From Candidatus Galloscillospira excrementavium (GTDB lineage: Bacteria > Bacillota > Clostridia > Oscillospirales > Oscillospiraceae), in assembly GCA_018711785.1 (NCBI GenBank), contig DVHW01000019.1, forward strand, positions 1 to 10,970: 10,970 nt of DNA, read 5' to 3'. Shown here in pieces: positions 1,147 through 9,166 of this stretch (positions within the stretch are counted from its first letter, which is position 1; every line of letters starts with the position of its first letter). Both the position numbers and the translations under genes were made by a program. The notes under the pieces were generated by a model. That model was given only the letters and a program-made list of their open reading frames with translations, did no database searches and had not been told where the DNA came from.

Positions 1147-1174
1147 GAGCCGCCCACAGCGGTGTGGACGGCTC
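1147..1174. other. GC-rich hairpin between uvrD/pcrA and repeat copy A
   Basis: Arms 1147-1158 and 1163-1174 pair over 12 positions around the loop GCGG. The one imperfect position is C/A on the plus strand and a G-T wobble on the minus strand, which slightly favours the helicase mRNA leader as the folded strand. It is followed by CCAGCCTGTCGAAA, which resembles CCAGTCTGTTAAAT after the hairpin next to copy C. It may therefore be an outer part of the repeat element. No T-run follows it on the plus strand, so it is not a canonical terminator there. Confidence 0.55.
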
Positions 1175-1178
1175 CAGC

Positions 1179-1373
1179 CTGTCGAAAAACCTCGTAGAGT
1201 TCGCGCCCGCAGGCGCGAAAAAAGTCCAATCGGTTTTTCGCCGCGACATGCGCGTGGCGAAAAACACTTCTCAGCGTGCCAGTGTGAGTTTTGCCCGCCT
1301 CACGCAAGGGCAAAATCTTGTACGCAGCACGCCGCTACTTTGTCGAAAAAGTGACTCGTCACTTTTTCGACAG
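1179..1373 (+). repeat. Structured intergenic repeat, copy A
   Basis: One of three related copies. The hairpins, in order, are: P1 1200-1207/1212-1219; P2 1233-1242/1256-1265 (GTTTTTCGCC with GGCGAAAAAC); P3 GCGTGC 1274-1279 with GCACGC 1327-1332; P4 GTGAG 1284-1288 with CTCAC 1299-1303; P5 TTTTGCCC 1289-1296 with GGGCAAAA 1308-1315; P6 1342-1354/1359-1371, a perfect 13-bp stem with loop CTCG. P4 and P5 interleave, as in an H-type pseudoknot, or they are alternatives. The ends are perfect 11-bp inverted repeats, CTGTCGAAAAA 1179-1189 and TTTTTCGACAG 1363-1373. The 8-mer CTCCAGCC occurs at 1172-1179 and 1377-1384, close to a target duplication. It shares 18 bases with copy C (1188-1205) and 18 with copy B (1233-1250). 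It lies between divergent genes. No protein is plausible in it. Confidence 0.85.
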
Positions 1374-1488
1374 CCTCTCCAGCCCAGTTCGTGTGTCCTA
1401 TTTTAGCGGAAACCGGCGGGAAGGTCAAGCCCCTCTCCCCTCTTTTCCCCGGCGGGGAGCGGTCGGGGTGGCGCGCCGGGCCGGTCTG

Positions 1489-1497
1489 TGCTACAAT
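1489..1497 (+). promoter_or_regulatory. Possible extended -10 promoter of the aminopeptidase gene
   Basis: TGC followed by TACAAT (1492-1497) matches the TGn-extended -10 pattern, 31 bases before the chosen ATG. No good -35 is seen at 17 bases upstream, which extended -10 promoters tolerate. The stretch 1385-1488 between copy A and this site holds GC-rich sequence and no gene that I can support. Confidence 0.45.
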
Positions 1498-1528
1498 GGT
1501 GCAAACTGCTTTGAGAGAAGGTATTTCC

Positions 1529-2608
1529 ATGACGCAAAAGCGCGCCCGGGACTACGGGCTCACCGTGGGCTCCCTCCCCGCCGGACCGCGGAACCTGATT
1601 ACCGACGTGCCCGGTGTGGCGGTGGGCCACTGCACGGTGGACACCGCCGAACACAAGACCGGGGTCACCGTCCTCCTCCCCTGCCCGGAAAACCCCTTTG
1701 TCCACAAGCTCCCCGCCGCCGCCTTTGTGCTCAACGGCTTCGGCAAGACGGCAGGGCTGGTCCAGGTGGAGGAGCTGGGCACCCTGGAGACCCCCGTCGC
1801 CCTCACCAACACCCTGAACGTGGGCCTGGTCCACGACGCGCTGGTGGAGTACATGGCCCGCCGGTGCGAGACCGAGGGGGTCTCCCTCCGGTCGGTGAAT
1901 CCGGTGGTCTGTGAGTGCAACGATTCCTCCCTCAACGACATCCTTCACCGTGCGGTGGGACAGGAGGAGGTCTTTGCCGCCCTCCGGAGCGCCAGGGCCG
2001 ACTTTGCCCTGGGGGACGTGGGGGCGGGCAAGGGCATGATCTGCCACGACCTGAAGGGGGGCATCGGCTCGGCCTCCCGCCGCATCCTGCTGGAGGAGGG
2101 GGAGTTCACCCTGGGGGTGCTGGCCCTGACAAACCACGGAAACCTCTCTGACCTGACCATCGCCGGACGGCACATCGGCCCCGCCCTGGCCGAGAAGCTC
2201 TCCGCCAAGGCCGCCCCCGACCAGGGCTCCTGCATCCTCCTCCTGGCCACCGACCTGCCCCTGGACGCCCGCCAGCTGGGCCGCACGGCCCGGCGGCTCT
2301 CGGTGGGCCTGGCCCGGCTGGGCTCCTACATCGGCCACGGCAGCGGGGAGGTCTTTCTCGCCTTCTCCACCGCCAATCCCTACGACCCCCGCTCCGAGGG
2401 GGCCCTGCGGGCCACGGTGTCCTTTGCCGAGGAGCAGATGGACCTGCCCTTCCGGGCGGCAGCCGAGTGCGCCGAGGAAGCGGTGCTGGACTCCATGCTC
2501 TGCGCCCACACGGTGACCGGGTGGGACGGGCGGACCGTGCCCGCCCTCACCGATCTGTGGAATCCCAATACCTTGTTTTCAAACAAGTGCGAGCACTTGT
2601 TCGAGTAG
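1529..2608 (+). CDS. P1 family (S58) aminopeptidase, DmpA-like
   Basis: A 359-residue protein of the DmpA / beta-peptidyl aminopeptidase family. These are N-terminal nucleophile hydrolases made as a precursor and self-cleaved before a Ser into two chains; they release N-terminal residues from small peptides, amides and esters. Family blocks seen: RNLITDVPGVAVGH (21-34), NTLNVGLVHDALVEY (94-108), GDVGAGKGM with DLKGGIGSASR (162-184), then QGSCILLLATDLPL (232-245). Gly233-Ser234 is the expected cleavage site and Ser234 the nucleophile. SYIGHGSGEVFLAFSTAN (266-283) follows. The ATG at 1529 is chosen because AGAAGG lies 7 bases upstream; an in-frame start at 1391 would add 46 unrelated residues. 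No signal peptide is seen, so it is likely cytoplasmic. The last nine codons and the TAG lie inside repeat copy C, so the natural C-terminus appears to have been replaced. The exact substrate is unknown. Confidence 0.92.
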   Translation: MTQKRARDYGLTVGSLPAGPRNLITDVPGVAVGHCTVDTAEHKTGVTVLLPCPENPFVHKLPAAAFVLNGFGKTAGLVQVEELGTLETPVALTNTLNVGLVHDALVEYMARRCETEGVSLRSVNPVVCECNDSSLNDILHRAVGQEEVFAALRSARADFALGDVGAGKGMICHDLKGGIGSASRRILLEEGEFTLGVLALTNHGNLSDLTIAGRHIGPALAEKLSAKAAPDQGSCILLLATDLPLDARQLGRTARRLSVGLARLGSYIGHGSGEVFLAFSTANPYDPRSEGALRATVSFAEEQMDLPFRAAAECAEEAVLDSMLCAHTVTGWDGRTVPALTDLWNPNTLFSNKCEHLFE

Positions 2609-2908
2609 GCTGCGGCCCGCTGCAGCGCACATCGTCGTCGCAGGCTTCGTATCTTTCGCCCTGCCGCGGGCGGCAGGGCTCACTCACTCCGCCGCTCCTC
2701 CTCCCCCCACACAAACCGCTGTGGTTTGCGTGGGGGCCCCATTCCGCGTGAGAGACCAGAACTCACGTTTGCTGGCCGAGAAGAGTTTTTCCCGAGGCAC
2801 ACAAGGTGAATTGCCCCAAAGGGGCAAGAGAAGGCCCTCTGGAGGGTGTCCCCGGGAAAAACGGATTTCCACTTTTTTCGCGGCGTGCGCCGCGAACTCT
2901 ACGAGGTT
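2578..2908 (-). repeat. Structured intergenic repeat, copy C (expanded, minus orientation)
   Basis: Read on the minus strand it opens with AACCTCGTAGAGTTCGCG (2908-2891), identical to copy A. P1 is 2889-2896/2877-2884. The P2 arms are GTTTTTCCC and GGGAAAAAC (2862-2854/2793-2785), but the loop is 60 bases long and holds two small hairpins (2811-2827, 2835-2846). The conserved ACTCTTCTCGG follows, then the P4 equivalent CGTGAG/CTCACG (2767-2762/2752-2747). Next come inserted hairpins 2704-2717/2723-2736 and 2658-2666/2671-2679. It closes with GCCGCAGCCTACTCGA (2616-2601), identical to copy B, and a P6-like stem 2582-2589/2594-2601. The 2704-2736 stem has a G-T wobble on the minus strand and an A/C mismatch on the plus strand, in line with minus-strand RNA. 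It lies directly downstream of sodA on the same strand and overlaps the end of the aminopeptidase gene. Confidence 0.8.
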
Positions 2909-2923
2909 TTATTTAACAGACTG

Positions 2924-2947
2924 GGGCCGCCCCGAACGGGGCGGCCC
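2924..2947 (-). terminator. Strong hairpin after the superoxide dismutase gene
   Basis: GGGCCGCCCC (2924-2933) and GGGGCGGCCC (2938-2947) form a perfect 10-bp GC stem with a 4-base loop, 7 bases past the sodA stop. On the minus strand it is followed by CCAGTCTGTTAAATAAAA. That is T/A-rich but lacks a proper T-run, so termination is plausible rather than certain. The hairpin sits just outside repeat copy C, as similar hairpins do at copies A and B, so it may belong to the element rather than to sodA. Confidence 0.6.
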
Positions 2948-2954
2948 GGTTCGT

Positions 2955-3590
2955 TTAAGCGGGGGACTGTCCGTCGGCCTCGTACCGCTGGGCGGCGAAC
3001 TCCCAGTTGATGAGGGAGAACCAACCCTCCACATAGTCCGCCCGGCGGTTCTGGTAGTCCAGGTAGTAGGCGTGCTCCCACACGTCCACGCACAGGACGG
3101 GCCACAGCCCCTGGGAGAGGGGGCAGTCCTGATTCGCGGTCTTGACCACCGAGAGCGCGCCCTTTCCGTCCCGGACCAGGAAGGCGTACCCGGAGCCGAA
3201 CTGGCCGACCGCGGCCTGCTTCATCTGGACCCGGAAGGACTCCAGGGAGCCGAAGGACCGCTCCATGGCCTGGGCCAGGGCGCCGGTGGGCCGGCTGCCC
3301 CGCCGGGGGGTGAGGCCGCAGAAGTACAGGGCGTGGTTGTAGACTCCGCCGCCGTTGTTGCGCACGGCGTCCCGCCGGTCGATGGGGACGGCCTCCAGGT
3401 CGGAGAGAAGCTCTTCCAGCGTCTTTGCCTGGCAGGACTCGCAGCCCTGGAGGGTGTTGTTCAGATTTTCCACGTAGGTCTTGAAGTGCTTGTCGTGGTG
3501 GAAGTGGAGGGTGCCCTCCCCCAGGATGGGCTTGAGTGCGTCGTAGGAGTAGGGCAGGTCGGGCAGGCGGTAGGGGTAGCGCAGGTCCAT
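2955..3590 (-). CDS. sodA: Fe/Mn-family superoxide dismutase, Mn-type residues
   Basis: Cytoplasmic superoxide dismutase of 211 residues, the usual length for the family. The N-terminal part (YRLPDLPYSYDALKPIL, then LHFHHDKHFKTYVENLNN) supplies metal ligand His31. NNGGGVYNHALYF supplies His86, and DVWEHAYYLDYQNRRADYV supplies Asp169 and His173. Gly82 stands where Fe enzymes have Gln, and Gln154 in TANQDCPL is in the Mn-type position. By the family rule this points to Mn or cambialistic use. Phe36 replaces the second His of the common KHH motif. The ATG at 3590 is chosen for the AAAGGA site 9 bases upstream; the 21 further in-frame residues do not match the family. It is divergent from Mini-RNase III. 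No signal peptide is seen. In a presumed strict anaerobe it would serve in transient oxygen defence. Confidence 0.95.
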   Translation of the reverse strand: MDLRYPYRLPDLPYSYDALKPILGEGTLHFHHDKHFKTYVENLNNTLQGCESCQAKTLEELLSDLEAVPIDRRDAVRNNGGGVYNHALYFCGLTPRRGSRPTGALAQAMERSFGSLESFRVQMKQAAVGQFGSGYAFLVRDGKGALSVVKTANQDCPLSQGLWPVLCVDVWEHAYYLDYQNRRADYVEGWFSLINWEFAAQRYEADGQSPA

Positions 3591-3617
3591 AAAAGTCGTC
3601 CTTTCTGCTTGAAAAAC

Positions 3618-3646
3618 TTGTAGGAACGAAAATTGTGCGGTATACT
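3618..3646 (+). promoter_or_regulatory. Possible promoter of the Mini-RNase III / RqcH pair
   Basis: TATACT (3641-3646) is a good -10. TTGTAG (3618-3623) stands 17 bases upstream as a weak -35, with three of six consensus bases. It faces the gene pair starting at 3710. The 119-base gap must also hold the sodA promoter on the other strand; I could not settle on one. Confidence 0.4.
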
Positions 3647-3709
3647 GTTCCAATGAGCCGCCCTTAGTGTAACACGGCGGGCATTGAATATTTGTCGGAG
3701 AGAAGATTT

Positions 3710-4114
3710 ATGACGGATTATTTTCACCTGGACATGCCGCGGGACGACATCGGCGCCATCAGCACCCTGGGCCTGGCCCATCTGGGGGACGCGGTGTATG
3801 AGCTGATGGTCCGCTCCTGGCTGTGCCTCCACGGCAAGGCCACCAATAAGGGCCTGCACAAGGCCACTGTGGGCTATGTGGCGGCCTCGGCCCAGGCGGC
3901 CAGGTCGGAGCGCATCCTGCCCCTGCTCACCCAGGAGGAGGCCGACGTGTTCCGCCGGGGGCGCAACTCCAGCCCCCACACGGTCTCCAAAGCGGCCAGC
4001 CGGGCCGACTACCAGACCGCCACGGCGGTGGAGGCCCTCTTCGGGTATCTTTACTTACAGGGCAGGACGGACCGGCTCAACGAGCTGTTTTGCGTGATGA
4101 TGGAGGAGAACTGA
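3710..4114 (+). CDS. mrnC: Mini-ribonuclease III
   Basis: An RNase III catalytic domain without the double-stranded-RNA-binding domain. In Bacillus it matures the 3' and 5' ends of 23S rRNA. The 134 residues match the family's size. LGLAHLGDAVYELMVR (20-35) is the RNase III signature, with Asp27 as the expected essential acid. Conserved RRGRN (92-96) follows, then TAVEALFGYLYL (115-126), with Glu118 as the second metal-binding acid. The ATG at 3710 is chosen because GGAG lies 9 bases upstream; a TTG at 3692 would place that site inside the gene. The stop overlaps nothing but abuts the next start (TGAATG), and GGAGGAG near its end serves as the ribosome-binding site of rqcH, so the two are likely translationally coupled. 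In many Firmicutes mrnC lies by cysS and rlmB instead. Confidence 0.94.
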   Translation: MTDYFHLDMPRDDIGAISTLGLAHLGDAVYELMVRSWLCLHGKATNKGLHKATVGYVAASAQAARSERILPLLTQEEADVFRRGRNSSPHTVSKAASRADYQTATAVEALFGYLYLQGRTDRLNELFCVMMEEN

Positions 4115-5839
4115 ATGCCGCTGGACGCAATTTGCCTGATGGCGGTGGCGGAGGAGCTCCGCGCCGCCGTCCTGGGCGGGAAAATCGACAAGGTATATCA
4201 GCCCAGCCGGGACGAGGTGGTCCTGGCGGTGCGGGGGAGCTGCGGGAACGGGAAGCTGCTCCTCTCGGGAAGCCCCAACCACCCCCGGGCCCAGCTCACT
4301 GAGCTCAGCCGGGAGAACCCGGCCCAGCCCCCCATGTTCTGTATGCTCCTGCGCAAGCACCTGACCGGCGCCCGCATCCTGGACATCGTCCAGCCCCCCA
4401 TGGAGCGGGTGCTGGACTTTCGCCTGGAGTGTTTGGACGAGCTGGGGGACCGGGTGGAGCGGCGGCTGGTGCTGGAGGCCCTGGGCCGCCACGCCAACCT
4501 GATTTTGCTGGACGGCGAGGGGCGCATCACCGACTGCCTGCGCCGGGTGGACTCCGACATGTCCCGCCAGCGGCAGGTGCTGCCCGGGCTCTACTACCGC
4601 CTGCCCCCCGCCCAGGAGAAGGCGGACCCCCTCGCCATGGACGAGGAGGAGCTGCGGGCCCTGCTCTCCTCCCTGCCCGAGCGGGAGGGGGACAAGCTGC
4701 TGCTGGACACCTTCAACGGCATCTCCCCCCTCATCGCCCGGGAGGTGGCCTTCCGGGCCGGAGGGGACCGGGGGGCCCTGGCAGACAAGCTGTTGGCCGT
4801 GCTGAACGATGTGCGGGAAAAACGCTTTACACCCTATATGCTCCTGCGGGAGGGAAAGCCGGTGGACTTCTCCTTCCTGCCCATCCTCCAGTACGGCCCG
4901 GCCACCGAGCTGCGGGAGTACGACACCTTCGGCCATCTCCTGGACGACTTCTACGCCCAGCGGGAGCAGGCCGACCGGGTGCGGCAGCGGGGGGCCGACC
5001 TGCTCCGCTCCGTGACCGCCGCCCGGGACCGCACCGCCCGCAAGCTCCAGAACCAGCGCCGGGAGCGGGAGGCCACCTACGGCCGGGAGCGGCTGCGGGA
5101 GCTGGGGGACATCCTCACCTCCAATCTCCACGCCATGGAGAAGGGGATGAGCAAGCTCACCGCCCAGGACTTCTACGACCCGGATGGAAAACTGGTTGAC
5201 ATCTCCCTGGACCCCCTGCTCACCCCCCAGCAGAACGCCGCCAAATACTATAAGGACTACAACCGGGCCAAGACGGCGGAGAGGATGCTCACCCTCCAGA
5301 TTGAGAAGAACGAGGGGGAGCTGGAGTACCTGAACAGCGTGCTGGAGAACCTGTCCCTGGCCGAAGGGGAGCGGGACCTCCAGGAGATCCGCCAGGAGCT
5401 CACCGACACCGGCTACCTCCGCCGCCAGAAGAAGGCGGCGGGGCGGGAAAAGCGGGTGGCGGGGAAGCCTATGGAGTTCCGGTCCTCTGCCGGGCTGCGC
5501 ATCTCGGTGGGCAAGAACAACAGCCAGAACGACATTCTCACCACCAAACTCTCCCGCAAGAGCGACATCTGGCTCCACACCCAGAAGATACACGGCTCCC
5601 ACGTCATCCTCTGGACCGAGGGGGGCGAGCCCGACCTGCAGAGCCTCCACGAGGCGGCGGTGCTGGCTGCTACCTTCTCCCAGGCCCGGGAGGGGAGCAA
5701 GGTGCCGGTGGACTACACCCCGGTGAAATACGTGAAGAAGCCCGCCGGCGCCCGGCCGGGCATGGTGGTCTACACCACCTATGAGACCGCCTACGTGGAC
5801 CCGAGTGAAGAGCTGGCCAAGCGCCTGCGGGTGAAGTAG
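4115..5839 (+). CDS. rqcH: RqcH, ribosome quality control factor (NFACT / FbpA family)
   Basis: A 574-residue NFACT protein, full length for bacterial RqcH (about 570). RqcH binds obstructed 50S subunits carrying peptidyl-tRNA, recruits alanyl-tRNA and adds an alanine tail that marks the stalled chain for degradation. Older names are fibronectin-binding protein, FbpA and PavA. The NFACT-N domain begins at residue 1, with KIDKVYQPSRDEVVLAVRG (23-41), ENPAQPPMFCMLLRKHL (67-83) and GRHANLILLD. The middle (about 276-445) is charged and helical, as expected of the coiled-coil arm. The C-terminal NFACT-R (DUF814) domain holds VGKNNSQND (465-473), SDIWLHTQKIHGSHV (483-497) and VKYVKKPAGARPGMVVY. The Asp-Arg pair used by Bacillus RqcH at 97-98 is Glu97-Arg98 here, a conservative change. 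It acts in the cytoplasm and is co-transcribed with mrnC. Confidence 0.95.
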   Translation: MPLDAICLMAVAEELRAAVLGGKIDKVYQPSRDEVVLAVRGSCGNGKLLLSGSPNHPRAQLTELSRENPAQPPMFCMLLRKHLTGARILDIVQPPMERVLDFRLECLDELGDRVERRLVLEALGRHANLILLDGEGRITDCLRRVDSDMSRQRQVLPGLYYRLPPAQEKADPLAMDEEELRALLSSLPEREGDKLLLDTFNGISPLIAREVAFRAGGDRGALADKLLAVLNDVREKRFTPYMLLREGKPVDFSFLPILQYGPATELREYDTFGHLLDDFYAQREQADRVRQRGADLLRSVTAARDRTARKLQNQRREREATYGRERLRELGDILTSNLHAMEKGMSKLTAQDFYDPDGKLVDISLDPLLTPQQNAAKYYKDYNRAKTAERMLTLQIEKNEGELEYLNSVLENLSLAEGERDLQEIRQELTDTGYLRRQKKAAGREKRVAGKPMEFRSSAGLRISVGKNNSQNDILTTKLSRKSDIWLHTQKIHGSHVILWTEGGEPDLQSLHEAAVLAATFSQAREGSKVPVDYTPVKYVKKPAGARPGMVVYTTYETAYVDPSEELAKRLRVK

Positions 5840-5918
5840 CCTCTGGGCGGCTGGCGGCGGCAGAGGGAGCCTTCGGGTCCACGTCCGCGCCGTTTGGCGC
5901 GTCCCAAGCGCCCGAGGG
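5840..5918 (+). terminator. Two GC hairpins after rqcH, possible terminator
   Basis: CCTCTG 5840-5845 pairs with CAGAGG 5861-5866. Then CCTTCGGG 5870-5877 pairs with CCCGAGGG 5911-5918 (one wobble), enclosing CGCGCC 5886-5891 / GGCGCG 5896-5901 with loop GTTT. No T-run follows, so it is not a canonical intrinsic terminator. I see no match to the three-copy repeat. The 122-base gap holds no gene. Confidence 0.4.
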
Positions 5919-5961
5919 TGAAGCAGGCGGGAATCAAAAACAAAAATGGGAGGGAACCGGC

Positions 5962-6381
5962 ATGGAGGAGCGGGAGCGGGTCATCCGCCTGTGGTTTGAA
6001 ATGTGGCTGCGGAAGAGGGACCTGGGCATGGGAGAGATCTTCGCCCCGGACGCCGTCTACCTCGAGAGCTGGGGCCCGGAGTACCACGGCCTGGAGAAGA
6101 TACGCCACTGGTTTGAAGAGTGGAACACCCGGGGCACGGTGCTGCGCTGGGACATCCGGGGGTTTTTCCACCGGGGAGAGGCCACGGCGGTGGAGTGGAT
6201 TTTCTGCAACCAGATGACAGACGGCCGGGTGGAGGCCTTTGAGGGCATGAGCCTGGTCCGCTGGACGCCGGAGGGGAAGATCTCCTTCCTCCAGGAGTTC
6301 GGCTGCAACGAGGACCGCTACGACCCCTACGCCGCCGGGCCGGAGCCCGTGTTCCGGCCGGAGGGGAGCCGCTGGTTCTGA
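5962..6381 (+). CDS. SnoaL-like (NTF2-fold) small protein
   Basis: A 139-residue single-domain protein that reads like the SnoaL / nuclear transport factor 2 superfamily. The opening helix is MEERERVIRLWFEMWLRKRD. FAPDAVYLESWGPEYHGLEKIRHWFEEW (27-54) is the typical block in which the pocket-forming residues are followed by the helix that closes the cone. Beta strands follow, including FHRGEATAVEWIFCNQ, FEGMSLVRW and KISFLQEF. The family includes cyclases, isomerases, dehydratases and many proteins without known function; no catalytic residue can be assigned. The ATG at 5962 has GGGAGGG 7 bases upstream. There is no signal peptide. It is 36 bases ahead of the response regulator on the same strand and might be co-transcribed with it, but nothing ties its role to the transporter. 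Confidence 0.8.
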   Translation: MEERERVIRLWFEMWLRKRDLGMGEIFAPDAVYLESWGPEYHGLEKIRHWFEEWNTRGTVLRWDIRGFFHRGEATAVEWIFCNQMTDGRVEAFEGMSLVRWTPEGKISFLQEFGCNEDRYDPYAAGPEPVFRPEGSRWF

Positions 6382-6417
6382 GCCGGCGGGCATCAACGAC
6401 AGAAAGGACGGACCGGA

Positions 6418-7119
6418 ATGGACACCTATCATATTTTAGTGGTGGAGGACGACCCGGACATCAACCGGCTGCTGTGCAAGATCCTCACCGACGGGGGCTA
6501 CGACTGCCGCCCCGCCTTTTCGGGCAGCGAGGCGGTGCTCTGGGCCCAGCAGTACAACTACGACCTGGTCCTGCTGGACCTGATGCTCCCCGGCCTGACG
6601 GGGGAGGAGTTCATCGCCCAGATGCGGCAGAAAAAGACCATGCCCATCATCGTCCTCTCCGCCAAGGCGGGGGTGGCCGACCGGGTGAACGTCCTCAAGC
6701 TGGGAGCGGACGACTTCATCCCCAAGCCCTTTGACAACAGCGAGGTCCTGGCCCGGGTGGAGGCCCAGCTGCGGCGGTACAGGCAGTTCTCCGGCGGCGG
6801 AGGGGAGAAGCAGGTGCTCACCTGCGGCGACCTGGTGCTGGACCGGGAGAGCGTCACCGTCACCGCCGGGGGGAAGCCGGTGGCCCTCACCGCCCGCGAG
6901 TTCGACATCCTCGCCCTCCTCATGTCCCACCCCAAGAAGGTCTTTACCCGGGGGCAGCTCTACGAGCAGGTGTGGGGCGGGGAGTACTTCGGGGACGACA
7001 ACACGGTGAACGTCCACATCTCCAACCTGCGCTCCAAGCTGGCCAAGGTGAGCGGCGGGGAGTACATCAAGACCGTGTGGGGCATCGGCTTCAAGATGAA
7101 CGAGGAGGCCCACGCCTAG
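6418..7119 (+). CDS. OmpR/PhoB-family response regulator
   Basis: A 233-residue DNA-binding response regulator. The receiver domain (1-about 118) has the acidic pair Asp11/Asp12, phospho-acceptor Asp54 in DLVLLDLMLPG, Ser81 in IIVLSAK, and Lys103 in DDFIPKPF, so all phosphotransfer residues are present. The winged-helix effector domain spans about 140-230, with LTAREFDILALLM, VFTRGQLYEQVWG, NTVNVHISNLRSKL and the wing sequence IKTVWGIGFKM. The ATG has an AAAGGA site 10 bases upstream. It is followed by an ABC transporter and, 2.8 kb later, by the only histidine kinase in the window, which is its likely partner. The arrangement suggests that it controls the transporter promoter at about 7150-7210. 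Such regulators often answer cell-envelope peptide antibiotics; that is inference here. Confidence 0.95.
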   Translation: MDTYHILVVEDDPDINRLLCKILTDGGYDCRPAFSGSEAVLWAQQYNYDLVLLDLMLPGLTGEEFIAQMRQKKTMPIIVLSAKAGVADRVNVLKLGADDFIPKPFDNSEVLARVEAQLRRYRQFSGGGGEKQVLTCGDLVLDRESVTVTAGGKPVALTAREFDILALLMSHPKKVFTRGQLYEQVWGGEYFGDDNTVNVHISNLRSKLAKVSGGEYIKTVWGIGFKMNEEAHA

Positions 7120-7151
7120 TCCCCCGCCGCCCGGGGAGGCAAAGTTTAGAG

Positions 7152-7209
7152 TTTCTTCACCTTTCCTTTAGCGGGAATTGTTGACTTGCCGTTATACTGG
7201 CATCACAAT
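7152..7209 (+). promoter_or_regulatory. Promoter and possible regulator site before the ABC transporter
   Basis: Two readings are possible. Either TATACT (7193-7198) is the -10 with no proper -35, which an activator would compensate, or TTGACT (7181-7186) is the -35 with CACAAT (7204-7209) 17 bases on. TTGACT and TATACT cannot pair with each other, being only 6 bases apart. Upstream lie TTCTTCA (7153-7159) and TCCTTTA (7164-7170), an imperfect direct repeat of period 11, as OmpR-type regulators bind. The T-rich stretch stands out in GC-rich surroundings. It starts 33 bases after the response regulator stop, so the transporter can be switched separately from the regulator. Confidence 0.55.
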
Positions 7210-7231
7210 CTCAAAGAAAGGTTGATGCCAC

Positions 7232-8155
7232 ATGGCAGAGAGCGTGCTCGTCACCCGGGACCTGACCAAGCGGTACGGTCAGGCCGCCGCGGTGAACAGC
7301 GTGAATTTGAATGTTGAAAAGGGACAGATCTACGGCCTGGTGGGCCGCAACGGGGCCGGCAAGACCACCATCATCCGCATGATCTCCGGGCAGACGGTGC
7401 CCTCCGGCGGGGAGCTGGAGCTCTTCGGGGCCACAACCCCGGCAGAGCAGAACAAGATGCGCCGCCGCACCGGCGCCATGGTGGAGACCCCCAGCTTCTA
7501 CCCCTACCTGAGCGCCCGGGAGAATTTGGAGTACTACCGCATCCAGCGGGGCATCCCCGGCCGGCACGTGGTGGACGAGGCCCTGGAGTTTGTGGACCTG
7601 GCGAACACGGGGAAGAAGAAGTTCAAGCACTTCTCCCTGGGCATGAAGCAGCGGCTGGGCCTGGCCCTGGCCCTGATGAACCACCCCGACTTCCTCCTGC
7701 TGGACGAGCCCATCAACGGCCTGGACCCGGAGGGCATCGTGGAGTTCCGCAACATCCTGCTGGACTTAAACCGCCAGCGGCAGACCACCATCCTCATCTC
7801 CAGCCACATCCTCACCGAGCTGGCCAACGTGGCCGACCACTACGGCTTTATCGACCGGGGGCGGATGCTGGAGCAGATCTCGGCCAAGGCCCTGGCCGAG
7901 AAGTGCCGGGCCTGCCTGGAGCTGACGGTGGCCGACGCGGCCCGGGCCGCCCAGGCCCTGGAGCAGAGCCTGGACATTTTGGACTACGAGGTCCTGCCCG
8001 GGAACGTCATCCGCCTTTACAGCCACCTGGACGAGCCCGCCCGGGTGACCCGGGCCCTGGTGGAGGCCGGCGTGGCCCTGGAGAGCATCGAGCAGAAGGG
8101 CGCCAACCTGGAGGACTACTTCCTCAAGCTGATCGGGGGTGTGCGCCATGGTTGA
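7232..8155 (+). CDS. ABC transporter ATPase, BcrA/LanF type with E-loop
   Basis: A 307-residue ATP-binding subunit that would power the two permeases that follow. Walker A is GRNGAGKT (38-45, Lys44), the signature is SLGMKQ (135-140), Walker B is FLLLDEP (Asp158, Glu159), the D-loop is NGLDPEG, and the switch is His192 in ISSHIL. The usual Q-loop Gln is Glu85 in GAMVETPSFYPYL. An E-loop at this site is the described hallmark of lantibiotic immunity ATPases (LanF), and BcrA-type resistance ATPases are close relatives. The C-terminal about 90 residues form an accessory domain of low conservation. The ATG at 7232 follows AAAGAAAGG by 10 bases. Its end overlaps the first permease by 8 bases. The likely role is keeping a peptide antibiotic off the membrane; the substrate is unknown. 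Confidence 0.93.
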   Translation: MAESVLVTRDLTKRYGQAAAVNSVNLNVEKGQIYGLVGRNGAGKTTIIRMISGQTVPSGGELELFGATTPAEQNKMRRRTGAMVETPSFYPYLSARENLEYYRIQRGIPGRHVVDEALEFVDLANTGKKKFKHFSLGMKQRLGLALALMNHPDFLLLDEPINGLDPEGIVEFRNILLDLNRQRQTTILISSHILTELANVADHYGFIDRGRMLEQISAKALAEKCRACLELTVADAARAAQALEQSLDILDYEVLPGNVIRLYSHLDEPARVTRALVEAGVALESIEQKGANLEDYFLKLIGGVRHG

Positions 8156-8906
8156 CTACATCCGCGCCGAGTTCTACAAGCTCTTCCACCGGCGGTACTT
8201 CTACCTGGCCCTCCTGTTCCTCTTCGGCTGCGCCGCCCTGCTGGTGGCGGGCTGGGCCTTTACCAACAGCAACGGCAACACCATTGACTTCAACAGCGGC
8301 GGCAGCATGGCCATCCTCCTGCTGTCCGTGGGGCTCTACGCCCCGGTCATCGTGGGCGACCTGGTCTTTTCCGAGCAGTACAAGGCCAATACCATGAAAA
8401 ACGAGGTCTCCTTCGGCCTGCCCCGCTCCCGCATCTACCTGGGCAAGCTGCTGGTCTCGGTGATCGTGGGGGTGGTGGCCGCCGTGGCGGTGCTGGCCTT
8501 CTACGAGCTGCTGTGCTGGCTGTTCCTCCTGCCCAGCGCGCCGGGGGAGGTGGAGCAGGTCCTGAGAATGGTGGGCTACGGCATCCTGGTGGCCCTGCCC
8601 CAGTGGCTGGGTATGCTGGCGGTGAACATGATGCTCAGCTTCCTGCTGCGCTCCACCACCCTGGCGGCCTTCCTCTCCATCGGCGTCATCGTGCTGCCCC
8701 AGACCCTGTTCAAGCTGCTGGGCCTGCTCATCAACGACGTGTTCGCCAAGGCGGCCGAGTGGATGCCCACCGCCATCGTGGAGGCCGTCCAGAGCCACAT
8801 GTTCGACTGGAGCTTCCTGGCGGGCAGCGTCATCGCCGGGGCGGTGTGGTTCGTGGCCGCCACCGCCGTCGGCCTGGCCGTGTTCCAGCGGCGGGAGATC
8901 AGCTGA
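8148..8906 (+). CDS. ABC-2 type permease 1 (BcrB / LanE-LanG like)
   Basis: A 252-residue integral membrane subunit with about six transmembrane segments: about 17-37, 53-73, 100-122, a pair across about 145-190, and 220-245. It starts MVDYIRAEFYKLF, the short amphipathic lead of ABC-2 permeases of the lantibiotic-immunity type. KNEVSFGLPRSRIYLGK (84-100) is shared with permease 2 at 16 of 17 residues. The ATG at 8148, with GGGGGT about 8 bases upstream, is preferred over an in-frame GTG at 8139, which would have no spacing. It overlaps the ATPase gene by 8 bases, a sign of coupling. A strong inverted repeat and repeat copy B separate it from permease 2, although the two should form one heterodimeric channel. 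Confidence 0.9.
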   Translation: MVDYIRAEFYKLFHRRYFYLALLFLFGCAALLVAGWAFTNSNGNTIDFNSGGSMAILLLSVGLYAPVIVGDLVFSEQYKANTMKNEVSFGLPRSRIYLGKLLVSVIVGVVAAVAVLAFYELLCWLFLLPSAPGEVEQVLRMVGYGILVALPQWLGMLAVNMMLSFLLRSTTLAAFLSIGVIVLPQTLFKLLGLLINDVFAKAAEWMPTAIVEAVQSHMFDWSFLAGSVIAGAVWFVAATAVGLAVFQRREIS

Positions 8907-8910
8907 GCCG

Positions 8911-8951
8911 CCCCAGCCGTGCCCCGGAGGACCTCCGGGGCACGGCTGGGG
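8911..8951. terminator. Near-perfect 20-bp inverted repeat after permease 1
   Basis: Arms 8911-8930 and 8932-8951 are exact reverse complements around a single A, so the effective stem is about 18 bp with a tiny loop. It begins 4 bases after the permease 1 stop. No T-run follows, so it is not a textbook terminator, but a stem this strong could slow RNA polymerase or protect the upstream mRNA from 3' exonucleases. It could partly separate the ATPase and permease 1 from permease 2 and the kinase. It sits beside repeat copy B, as other GC hairpins sit beside copies A and C. Confidence 0.6.
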
Positions 8952-8990
8952 ACTGCGGCCACAGTGAATCCAGCTTCCAAAGGTCTCACC

Positions 8991-9166
8991 GAGTTCGCGG
9001 CGCGCACGCCGCGAATAAATTAAAAATCCGTTTTTCGCCGCGACATGTGCGTGGCGAAAAACTCTTCTCGGCGTGCAAGTGTGAGGCTTGTCCGTCTCAC
9101 GCAAGGACAAGACCTTGCGCGAAGCACGCCGCAGCCTACTCGAAAAAGTGTCTTGCACTTTTTCGA
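8991..9166 (+). repeat. Structured intergenic repeat, copy B
   Basis: Same order of helices as copy A: P1 8994-9002/9007-9015; P2 9030-9039/9053-9062 (arms identical to A); P3 GCGTGC 9071-9076 with GCACGC 9124-9129; P4 GTGAG 9081-9085 with CTCAC 9096-9100; P5 CTTGTCC 9087-9093 with GGACAAG 9105-9111; P6 9140-9150/9156-9166. Against copy A, two P5 pairs change on both sides (T-A to C-G, C-G to T-A) and P1 also changes in a paired way. The 5' end is less clear than in A and there is no terminal inverted repeat. It fills the gap between the two permease genes, ending 25 bases before the second start. An in-frame ORF from 9045 through it into permease 2 is not credible as coding sequence. Confidence 0.85.

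What the first reader, a model, noticed from the sequence alone, without database searches (positions are those of the whole stretch)
1179..9166. Three copies of one structured intergenic repeat in 11 kb
Copies A (1179-1373, plus), C (2578-2908, minus) and B (8991-9166, plus) share exact blocks: 18 bases between A and C at 1188-1205 / 2891-2908, 18 between A and B at 1233-1250 / 9030-9047, and 16 between B and C at 9128-9143 / 2601-2616. All have the same order of hairpins and a shared CTTCTC linker. Three copies in both orientations in one window imply a high copy number in the genome. I do not recognise the family. Candidates are a MITE-like or REP-like mobile element, or a repeated structured RNA.
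Basis: seen in the sequence. Interest (0 to 1): 0.85.

Follow-up and report, generated by a model that had tools for sequence, protein, structure and literature searches.

The report
Terminator-doubling mobile element with RNA core
The three repeats are copies of a short, gene-less mobile element present in up to dozens of copies per genome in one bacterial family; it often lands in the hairpins that end transcription and doubles them, and it carries a conserved folded, RNA-like core that matches no family in the RNA library searched.

Summary
The own genome, a 71%-complete draft, holds 39 model matches; 21 of 37 genomes of the same family and 1 of 23 from other families of the order carry the element. 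In the class, 3 of 293 genomes matched, all of the own family. It is a mobile, gene-less element of about 200 nt. One class has ends like CAGNCTGTCGAAAAA and lies between two copies of one hairpin: 33 of 127 copies have a direct flank repeat scoring 15 or more, against 0.16% of shuffled pairs. Two IS1182-family insertion sequences have such ends and such hairpin duplication, so that family is the likely mobiliser. A second class lacks the left end and mostly the duplication; an end-less copy is absent from 7 of 7 congeners read. The interior keeps one fold: 94% of cells paired, covariation 0.51 against 0.18 shuffled, 153 G.U against 7 A.C cells, which points to a plus-strand RNA. No Rfam family matches. 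Mobility is well supported; the RNA's job, and how the second class moves, are not shown.

The parts
1175..1377 (+). Copy A, full element with both ends
   Evidence: R1 match 1187-1370, 198 bits; left end CAGCCTGTCGAAAAA at 1175-1189, right end TTTTTCGACAGCCTC at 1363-1377
1147..1174 (.). 28-nt palindrome directly against the left end of copy A (candidate target hairpin; no second copy on the right)
1200..1219 (+). Hairpin H1 of copy A, loop CGCA
1233..1265 (+). Hairpin H2 of copy A, loop ACATGYG, covarying stem with a conserved wobble pair
1266..1272 (+). Conserved linker ACTTCTC
1273..1332 (+). Domain H3 of copy A
1342..1371 (+). Hairpin H4 of copy A at the right end
2578..2923 (-). Copy C, long copy with two inserted cassettes; H4 at 2579-2604
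2801..2846 (-). Cassette M1 in the H2 loop of copy C (limits approximate, set by eye)
2629..2743 (-). Cassette M3 in the H3 loop of copy C (limits approximate, set by eye)
2924..2947 (.). 24-nt palindrome directly against the left end of copy C
8981..9166 (+). Copy B (H1 8994-9015, H2 9030-9062, H4 9140-9166); left end degraded
   Evidence: R1 match 8981-9166, 190 bits
8911..8951 (.). Perfect hairpin with 20-bp arms about 30 nt upstream of copy B
   Evidence: I21

Best explanation
This is a family of short, non-autonomous DNA transposons (MITE-like) of the Oscillospiraceae whose cargo is a conserved folded, RNA-like module (H1, H2, linker, H3, H4). The class with ends is moved by IS1182-type transposases. 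They act on palindromes, mostly hairpins that look like intrinsic terminators, and join the element at the feet of the hairpin, so that the whole hairpin is duplicated and each neighbour keeps one. Shown here by sequence comparison: copy number, spread, ends, hairpin duplication, the same ends and duplication in two IS1182 elements, one recent insertion, and structural constraint with a strand bias. Inferred: that IS1182 transposases act in trans on the element, that the hairpins are working terminators, that the plus-strand transcript is the constrained molecule, and that the fold serves the element's own spread (for example transposase binding or transcript protection). How the end-less class moves is not explained.
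For: Copies: 39 model matches in the own genome, 21 of 37 same-family genomes, 1 of 23 from other families. Hairpin duplication: 33 of 127 copies with direct flank repeats scoring 15 or more versus 0.16% of shuffled pairs; 34 of 127 if inverted repeats count too, versus none of the shuffled pairs. Strong hairpins (-18 kcal/mol or lower in 42 nt) next to the left end in 49 and the right end in 52 of 127 copies, versus 6.1% of 964 control stretches. IS1182 elements with the same kind of ends: L458 (1,496 bp, exact 31-bp palindrome on both sides) and L457 (1,522 bp, same hairpin on both sides, loop inverted); IS1182 family at E 3e-115 to 2e-112 for three proteins. Recent insertion: the nusA/ylxR copy is absent in 7 of 7 congeners read. 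Fold: 25 pairs in 53 sequences, 94.0% of cells paired versus 75.2% shuffled, covariation 0.510 versus 0.178 shuffled and at most 0.136 slid. G.U 153 versus A.C 7; one sequence per genome 52 versus 3; without the four wobble-rich pairs 24 versus 6.
Against: A strong match to this transposase is present in only 2 of the 24 element-bearing genomes searched (G012, G089); G000 and G001 have weak or partial hits; none in V. fastidiosa (G391), which has a recent insertion, nor in G033. 94 of 127 copies have no direct repeat scoring 15 or more. In 63 of 131 copies simple patterns found neither end and there was no duplication. Of four IS1182 elements with such ends, two (L463, L464) show no duplication. 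Perfect stems can also arise from palindrome-correcting replication errors. Folding energy does not separate the strands. The 25 pairs were chosen on the alignment on which they were counted. No transcript data were available.
Confidence: 0.55

Rival explanations
1. Plain MITE without RNA function. The stems stay perfect because replication template switching copies one arm onto the other, or because the hairpins serve as DNA sites for the transposase; the covariation is mutational or acts at DNA level.
For: H1, the H3 top and H4 swap whole stem sequences among otherwise similar copies within one genome; 5 of 34 flank hairpin pairs match better as inverted than as direct copies, which suggests hairpin-copying events; prokaryotic MITEs are described as forming stem-loops (PMC10969869, passages).
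Against: Wobble pairs are the commonest state at three fixed places (143-178 U.G in 46 of 53, 144-177 G.U in 37, 99-111 G.U in 30) and would be A.C mismatches on the other strand; G.U 153 versus A.C 7. Palindrome correction would make Watson-Crick pairs there. Loop and linker sequences are shared across genera.
Confidence: 0.22
2. The core itself is the mobile unit and moves by an RNA-dependent or other route that needs neither terminal repeats nor target duplication; the class with IS1182-like ends is a core captured by such ends.
For: 15 class-N copies of V. fastidiosa share the core at 88% mean identity while the left 20 nt are at 0.325; 1 of 15 of them has a flank repeat scoring 15 or more versus 9 of 14 in class T; an end-less copy is a recent insertion; strand-biased wobble pairs.
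Against: No reverse transcriptase or other agent was linked to the element (none was searched for); one class-N copy, L406, still has a decayed terminator duplication and several show residues of the ends by eye; some may come from the hairpin-replacing mode described for IS1272, which leaves no duplication.
Confidence: 0.13
3. A cis-acting host element: a riboregulator, 3'-UTR stabiliser or terminator used by the neighbouring gene.
For: 25 of 27 copies tabulated by hand in annotated V. fastidiosa stretches have a flanking gene whose 3' end faces the copy; some abut stop codons, for example that of nusA.
Against: No orientation preference that would make it part of the mRNA: tandem sense 5, tandem antisense 11, convergent 9, divergent 2 of 27 (by hand); crude own gene calls give 32 sense versus 27 antisense tandem placements among 131 copies. 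The neighbours are varied genes, and one site is empty in 7 of 7 congeners read.
Confidence: 0.1

Closest known systems
IS1182 family (IS1272, TnSha1)
   Same: Hairpin or terminator targets without sequence consensus; DDE transposase; matching ends in the IS1182 members found here. [quoted passage not shown]
   Different: IS1272 and TnSha1 replace or delete the hairpin and leave no duplication (PMC5678879 sections 22 and 24; PMC4923244 passages). Here the hairpin is duplicated in one class, and the element has no gene and carries a conserved structured core. Recalled, from no call: ISfinder's tables give direct repeats of 0-60 bp for IS1182, so long duplications in the family may not be new.
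Prokaryotic MITEs (BOX, RUP, SPRITE, Correia, QMITE)
   Same: Short, gene-less, intergenic, many copies; terminal repeats and target duplication in one class; elements inserted into one another (PMC10969869, passages).
   Different: The target is a whole palindrome and the duplication is about 19-40 bp; the core keeps one covarying fold with conserved wobble pairs across genera; a second class lacks the left terminal repeat.
REP/BIME with RAYT transposases (recalled, no call)
   Same: Repeated extragenic hairpins in many copies.
   Different: Much longer here, with four domains; RAYT/Y1 transposases were not searched for.
Group IIC introns (recalled, no call)
   Same: Structured RNA that prefers terminators.
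   Different: No relevant Rfam match and DNA-transposon-like ends in one class.

Membership tests
MITE (non-autonomous DNA transposon) | Short and without a transposase gene | tested here: met
   Model matches span about 143-200 nt, up to 365 nt with cassettes, too short for a transposase; no test for a short conserved reading frame was run
MITE (non-autonomous DNA transposon) | Terminal inverted repeats and target duplication | tested here: inconclusive
   Present in one class: direct flank repeats in 33 of 127; in V. fastidiosa 9 of 14 class-T but 1 of 15 class-N copies
MITE (non-autonomous DNA transposon) | Ends shared with an autonomous IS | tested here: met
   L457, L458, L463, L464
IS1182-mobilised element | Same kind of terminal repeats and same hairpin-duplicating insertion as an IS1182 element | tested here: met
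   L458 exact 31-bp palindrome on both sides; L457 same hairpin with inverted loop; L463 and L464 share ends but show no duplication
IS1182-mobilised element | Transposase present in the host | tested here: not met
   Strong match in 2 of 24 element-bearing genomes; many assemblies are incomplete
IS1182-mobilised element | Transposition in trans by the transposase | not testable with these tools
   Needs a mobility assay
Any Rfam family | Match to a covariance model | tested here: not met
   In the window only five weak hits, all on the 8911-8951 hairpin region and all below gathering scores; 0 matches at E up to 0.1 in six loci
Functional structured RNA | Covariation above controls | tested here: met
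   0 of 500 shuffles reach the observed value on any of five measures; slid versions far lower
Functional structured RNA | Transcription | not testable with these tools
   No expression data
REP/RAYT element | Cognate Y1 transposase | not tested
   No search was made

The most novel reading that the evidence does not exclude
The core is a mobile RNA: a SINE-like bacterial element whose structured transcript, not terminal repeats, is what is copied into new sites. This would account for the copies of V. fastidiosa that lack ends and duplication, one of which is a recent insertion, while IS1182-type ends were acquired by one branch.
Probability: 0.12. Interest if true: 0.92.

Novelty: new variant of a known kind. 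Interest (0 to 1): 0.64.

Why it matters
The element is present in many genomes of one bacterial family and, in Vescimonas fastidiosa, even between genes of the nusA-ylxR pair. If the reading holds, it gives natural examples of an outcome drawn for structure-guided IS1182 transposition (duplication of the whole hairpin), shows a way for a transposon to land with little harm because each neighbour keeps a hairpin, and offers a MITE-like element with an RNA-like fold under selection. That makes the question whether a mobile DNA can depend on its own structured RNA directly testable.

Tried and rejected
Rfam (window at E up to 1, six further loci at E up to 0.1): nothing relevant.

H-type pseudoknot in H3 (first idea from copies A and B): set aside, because the outer arm pair is lost in copies with CCCCC in the loop, while the simple nested stem is kept.

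RNAalifold pairs of GAG with CTC before H4 (columns 11-13 with 161-163 of A1): not in the structure predicted across genera, so not counted; they remain part of model R1.

Structured core inside IS1182 elements: no R1 match at E up to 0.1, default filters, in the 28 loci L217-L244 or in L191-L193.

IS110-like bridge RNA: considered and set aside because the variable parts are stems and no loop seemed to follow the flanks (reading; no formal test).

The first gene-orientation script was faulty, since it cut frames at the element; it was replaced, itself crude. Orientation claims rest mainly on annotated V. fastidiosa stretches.

Window synteny with the congener G001: the places of copies A-C have no counterpart there, so no empty site could be read.

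Literature: eight searches listed no paper that by title or shown abstract describes this repeat; most listed papers were not opened, and subscription papers and ISfinder are not covered.
Full report
WHAT WAS CHECKED. The window lies in a draft genome (G000, 1.82 Mb, 281 contigs, 70.8% complete). There copy A gives 49 and copy C 65 BLAST matching pieces, and a covariance model of 17 copies (R1) gives 39 matches.

ANATOMY. From 5' to 3': a conserved CCTCGYAGAG; hairpin H1 (loop often CGCA); an A-rich linker ending AATC; hairpin H2 with a U/A-rich foot and loop ACATGYG; the linker ACTTCTC; domain H3, with a G+C-rich base, an inner helix with two neighbouring wobble pairs and a top stem that varies freely; a pyrimidine-rich linker; hairpin H4. 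Some copies carry cassettes in the hairpin loops: M1 and M2 in H2, M3 in H3, M4 in H1. Two have a doubled H1, and one has lost the middle and is 62 nt. Window copy C carries M1 and M3, which is why it is long.

SPREAD. R1 matches 22 of 60 relatives: 21 of 37 genomes of the same family and 1 of 23 from other families of the order. At most 44 candidates per genome were scored, with stricter filters, so counts are lower bounds. In the class, 3 of 293 genomes (90% complete or more, except the own one) matched at 1e-5, all from the own family, with only 9 candidates scored per genome. Genome G033 is probably Papillibacter cinnamivorans, because a contig has the same length, 348,713. An annotated replicon of Vescimonas fastidiosa (861 kb) has 39 matches, 33 of them with 95 bits or more.

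MOBILITY WITH HAIRPIN DUPLICATION. In 33 of 127 copies with enough flank, the two flanks hold a direct repeat scoring 15 or more; flanks paired at random between copies do so in 0.16%. The repeats are 19-40 bp long, most are whole palindromes that look like intrinsic terminators (judged by eye; a few, such as L115, L119 and L124, are not palindromic), and most begin 8-19 nt left of the model start and 2-10 nt right of its end. This places the ends near CAGNCTGTCGAAAAA and TTTTTCGACAGNCTC. L156 and L157 carry nearly identical elements in different duplicated palindromes. Counting inverted matches as well gives 34 of 127 (none in the shuffled pairs), 5 of them better inverted. Strong hairpins lie next to the left end in 49 and next to the right end in 52 of 127 copies, against 6.1% of 964 control stretches 300-900 nt away; the controls are probably mostly coding, so part of the excess may reflect intergenic position. 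In the window, copies A and C have a palindrome directly against their left ends but no second copy on the right.

THE LIKELY MOBILISER. Transposase family PF13751 occurs in 49 of 200 genomes of the host family; some members lie in insertion sequences with ends like those of the element. L458 (1,496 bp, ends CAGTTTGTCAAAAAA) is flanked on both sides by an exact 31-bp palindrome. L457 (1,522 bp, ends CAGACTGTCGAA) is flanked on both sides by the same hairpin, the loop being inverted on one side. L464 and L463 share such ends, but L464 has a hairpin on one side only and L463 different hairpins on its two sides, so neither shows a duplication. Other PF13751 elements fetched have other ends. The three proteins tested belong to IS1182 (NF033551, E 3e-115 to 2e-112). 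IS1272 and TnSha1 of this family are known to attack hairpins and terminators but to replace or delete them (PMC5678879: abstract, sections 22 and 24, passages; PMC4923244: passages). [quoted passage not shown] the present elements look like natural cases of that path. Against a simple story, a strong match to this transposase is present in only 2 of 24 element-bearing genomes searched.

A SECOND CLASS. In V. fastidiosa, 29 of the 33 strong copies were grouped by their H2 into 14 of class T and 15 of class N. Direct flank repeats scoring 15 or more occur in 9 of 14 T and 1 of 15 N. Class N shares the core at 88% mean identity, but its left 20 nt at only 0.325 and its right 12 nt at 0.469. The copy between nusA and ylxR (L407/L424) has a class-T H2 but the borders of class N. 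It is absent from 7 of 7 species of the same genus whose nusA-ylxR junction I read; an eighth species of that genus in the sample, G296, was not fetched. So it is probably recent. How such copies move is open: lost or altered ends, hairpin replacement as in IS1272, or another route.

WHY AN RNA IS SUSPECTED. On 53 copies from 18 genomes aligned by sequence alone, 25 pairs of H2 and H3 are 94.0% paired (shuffled 75.2%), with 231 double changes (63.5) and a covariation score of 0.510 (0.178); sliding the partners gives at most 0.136. The structure was chosen on the same alignment, which favours it somewhat. The pairs are strand-biased: 153 G.U against 7 A.C cells; 52 against 3 with one sequence per genome; 24 against 6 after leaving out the four wobble-rich pairs. 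At three places a wobble pair is the commonest state; on the other strand it would be an A.C mismatch. Folding energy alone does not separate the strands: copy A gives -83.1 and its complement -83.9 kcal/mol, z -7.35 and -5.23. Whole-stem swaps among similar copies could partly come from palindrome-correcting replication errors, which would imitate covariation in perfect stems but would not keep wobble pairs.

SURROUNDINGS. Window neighbours are ordinary: UvrD helicase, peptidase S58, Fe/Mn superoxide dismutase, a ribonuclease III domain protein, NFACT, SnoaL-like, response regulator, ABC transporter parts. For the 27 of 33 strong V. fastidiosa copies that lie in the annotated stretches fetched, I tabulated by hand 9 convergent, 2 divergent, 5 tandem-sense and 11 tandem-antisense placements (that gene table is incomplete). 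There is no sign that the element must be part of a neighbour's mRNA.

JUDGEMENT. Mobility of the family: about 0.95. IS1182-type mobilisation of the class with ends: about 0.8. Selection on a plus-strand RNA or RNA-like fold: about 0.7. The combined reading: 0.55. After rechecking the calls I corrected some counts and ranges; none of these changes moved the odds.

Noticed in passing
L245 (about 6262, minus), L246, L247, L248, L249, L250 (genome G033): A second short element family with the same kind of ends and, in several cases, the same hairpin on both sides, but a different hairpin-rich interior; L246 and L249 match R1 only weakly, about 21 bits.
   Followed up: partly
window 2579-2608: The peptidase S58 gene reads into copy C, so its last codons and stop lie in or next to the element's H4; the Pfam domain ends before that.
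   Followed up: partly
L051, L058, L060 and other places in the own genome: Sequence like cassette M3 gives BLAST matches away from any element match, so the cassettes may be mobile on their own; exact M3 motifs were not found in these three loci.
   Followed up: partly
own genome contigs C20, C226, C269; L089, L169: Several contigs begin inside or next to the element, so the repeat probably breaks assemblies.
   Followed up: no
L457; flanks of L079, L105, L122, L123, L135: The two flanking hairpins match better as inverted than as direct copies.
   Followed up: partly
window about 5860-5935: By eye, a G+C-rich stretch with inverted repeats between the NFACT and SnoaL-like genes that does not look like the element.
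   Followed up: no
MT836333.1 6602-6774 (L387): A match to copy A at 74% identity in an unannotated faecal 'Bacteriophage sp.' scaffold; whether the scaffold is phage or host was not checked.
   Followed up: no
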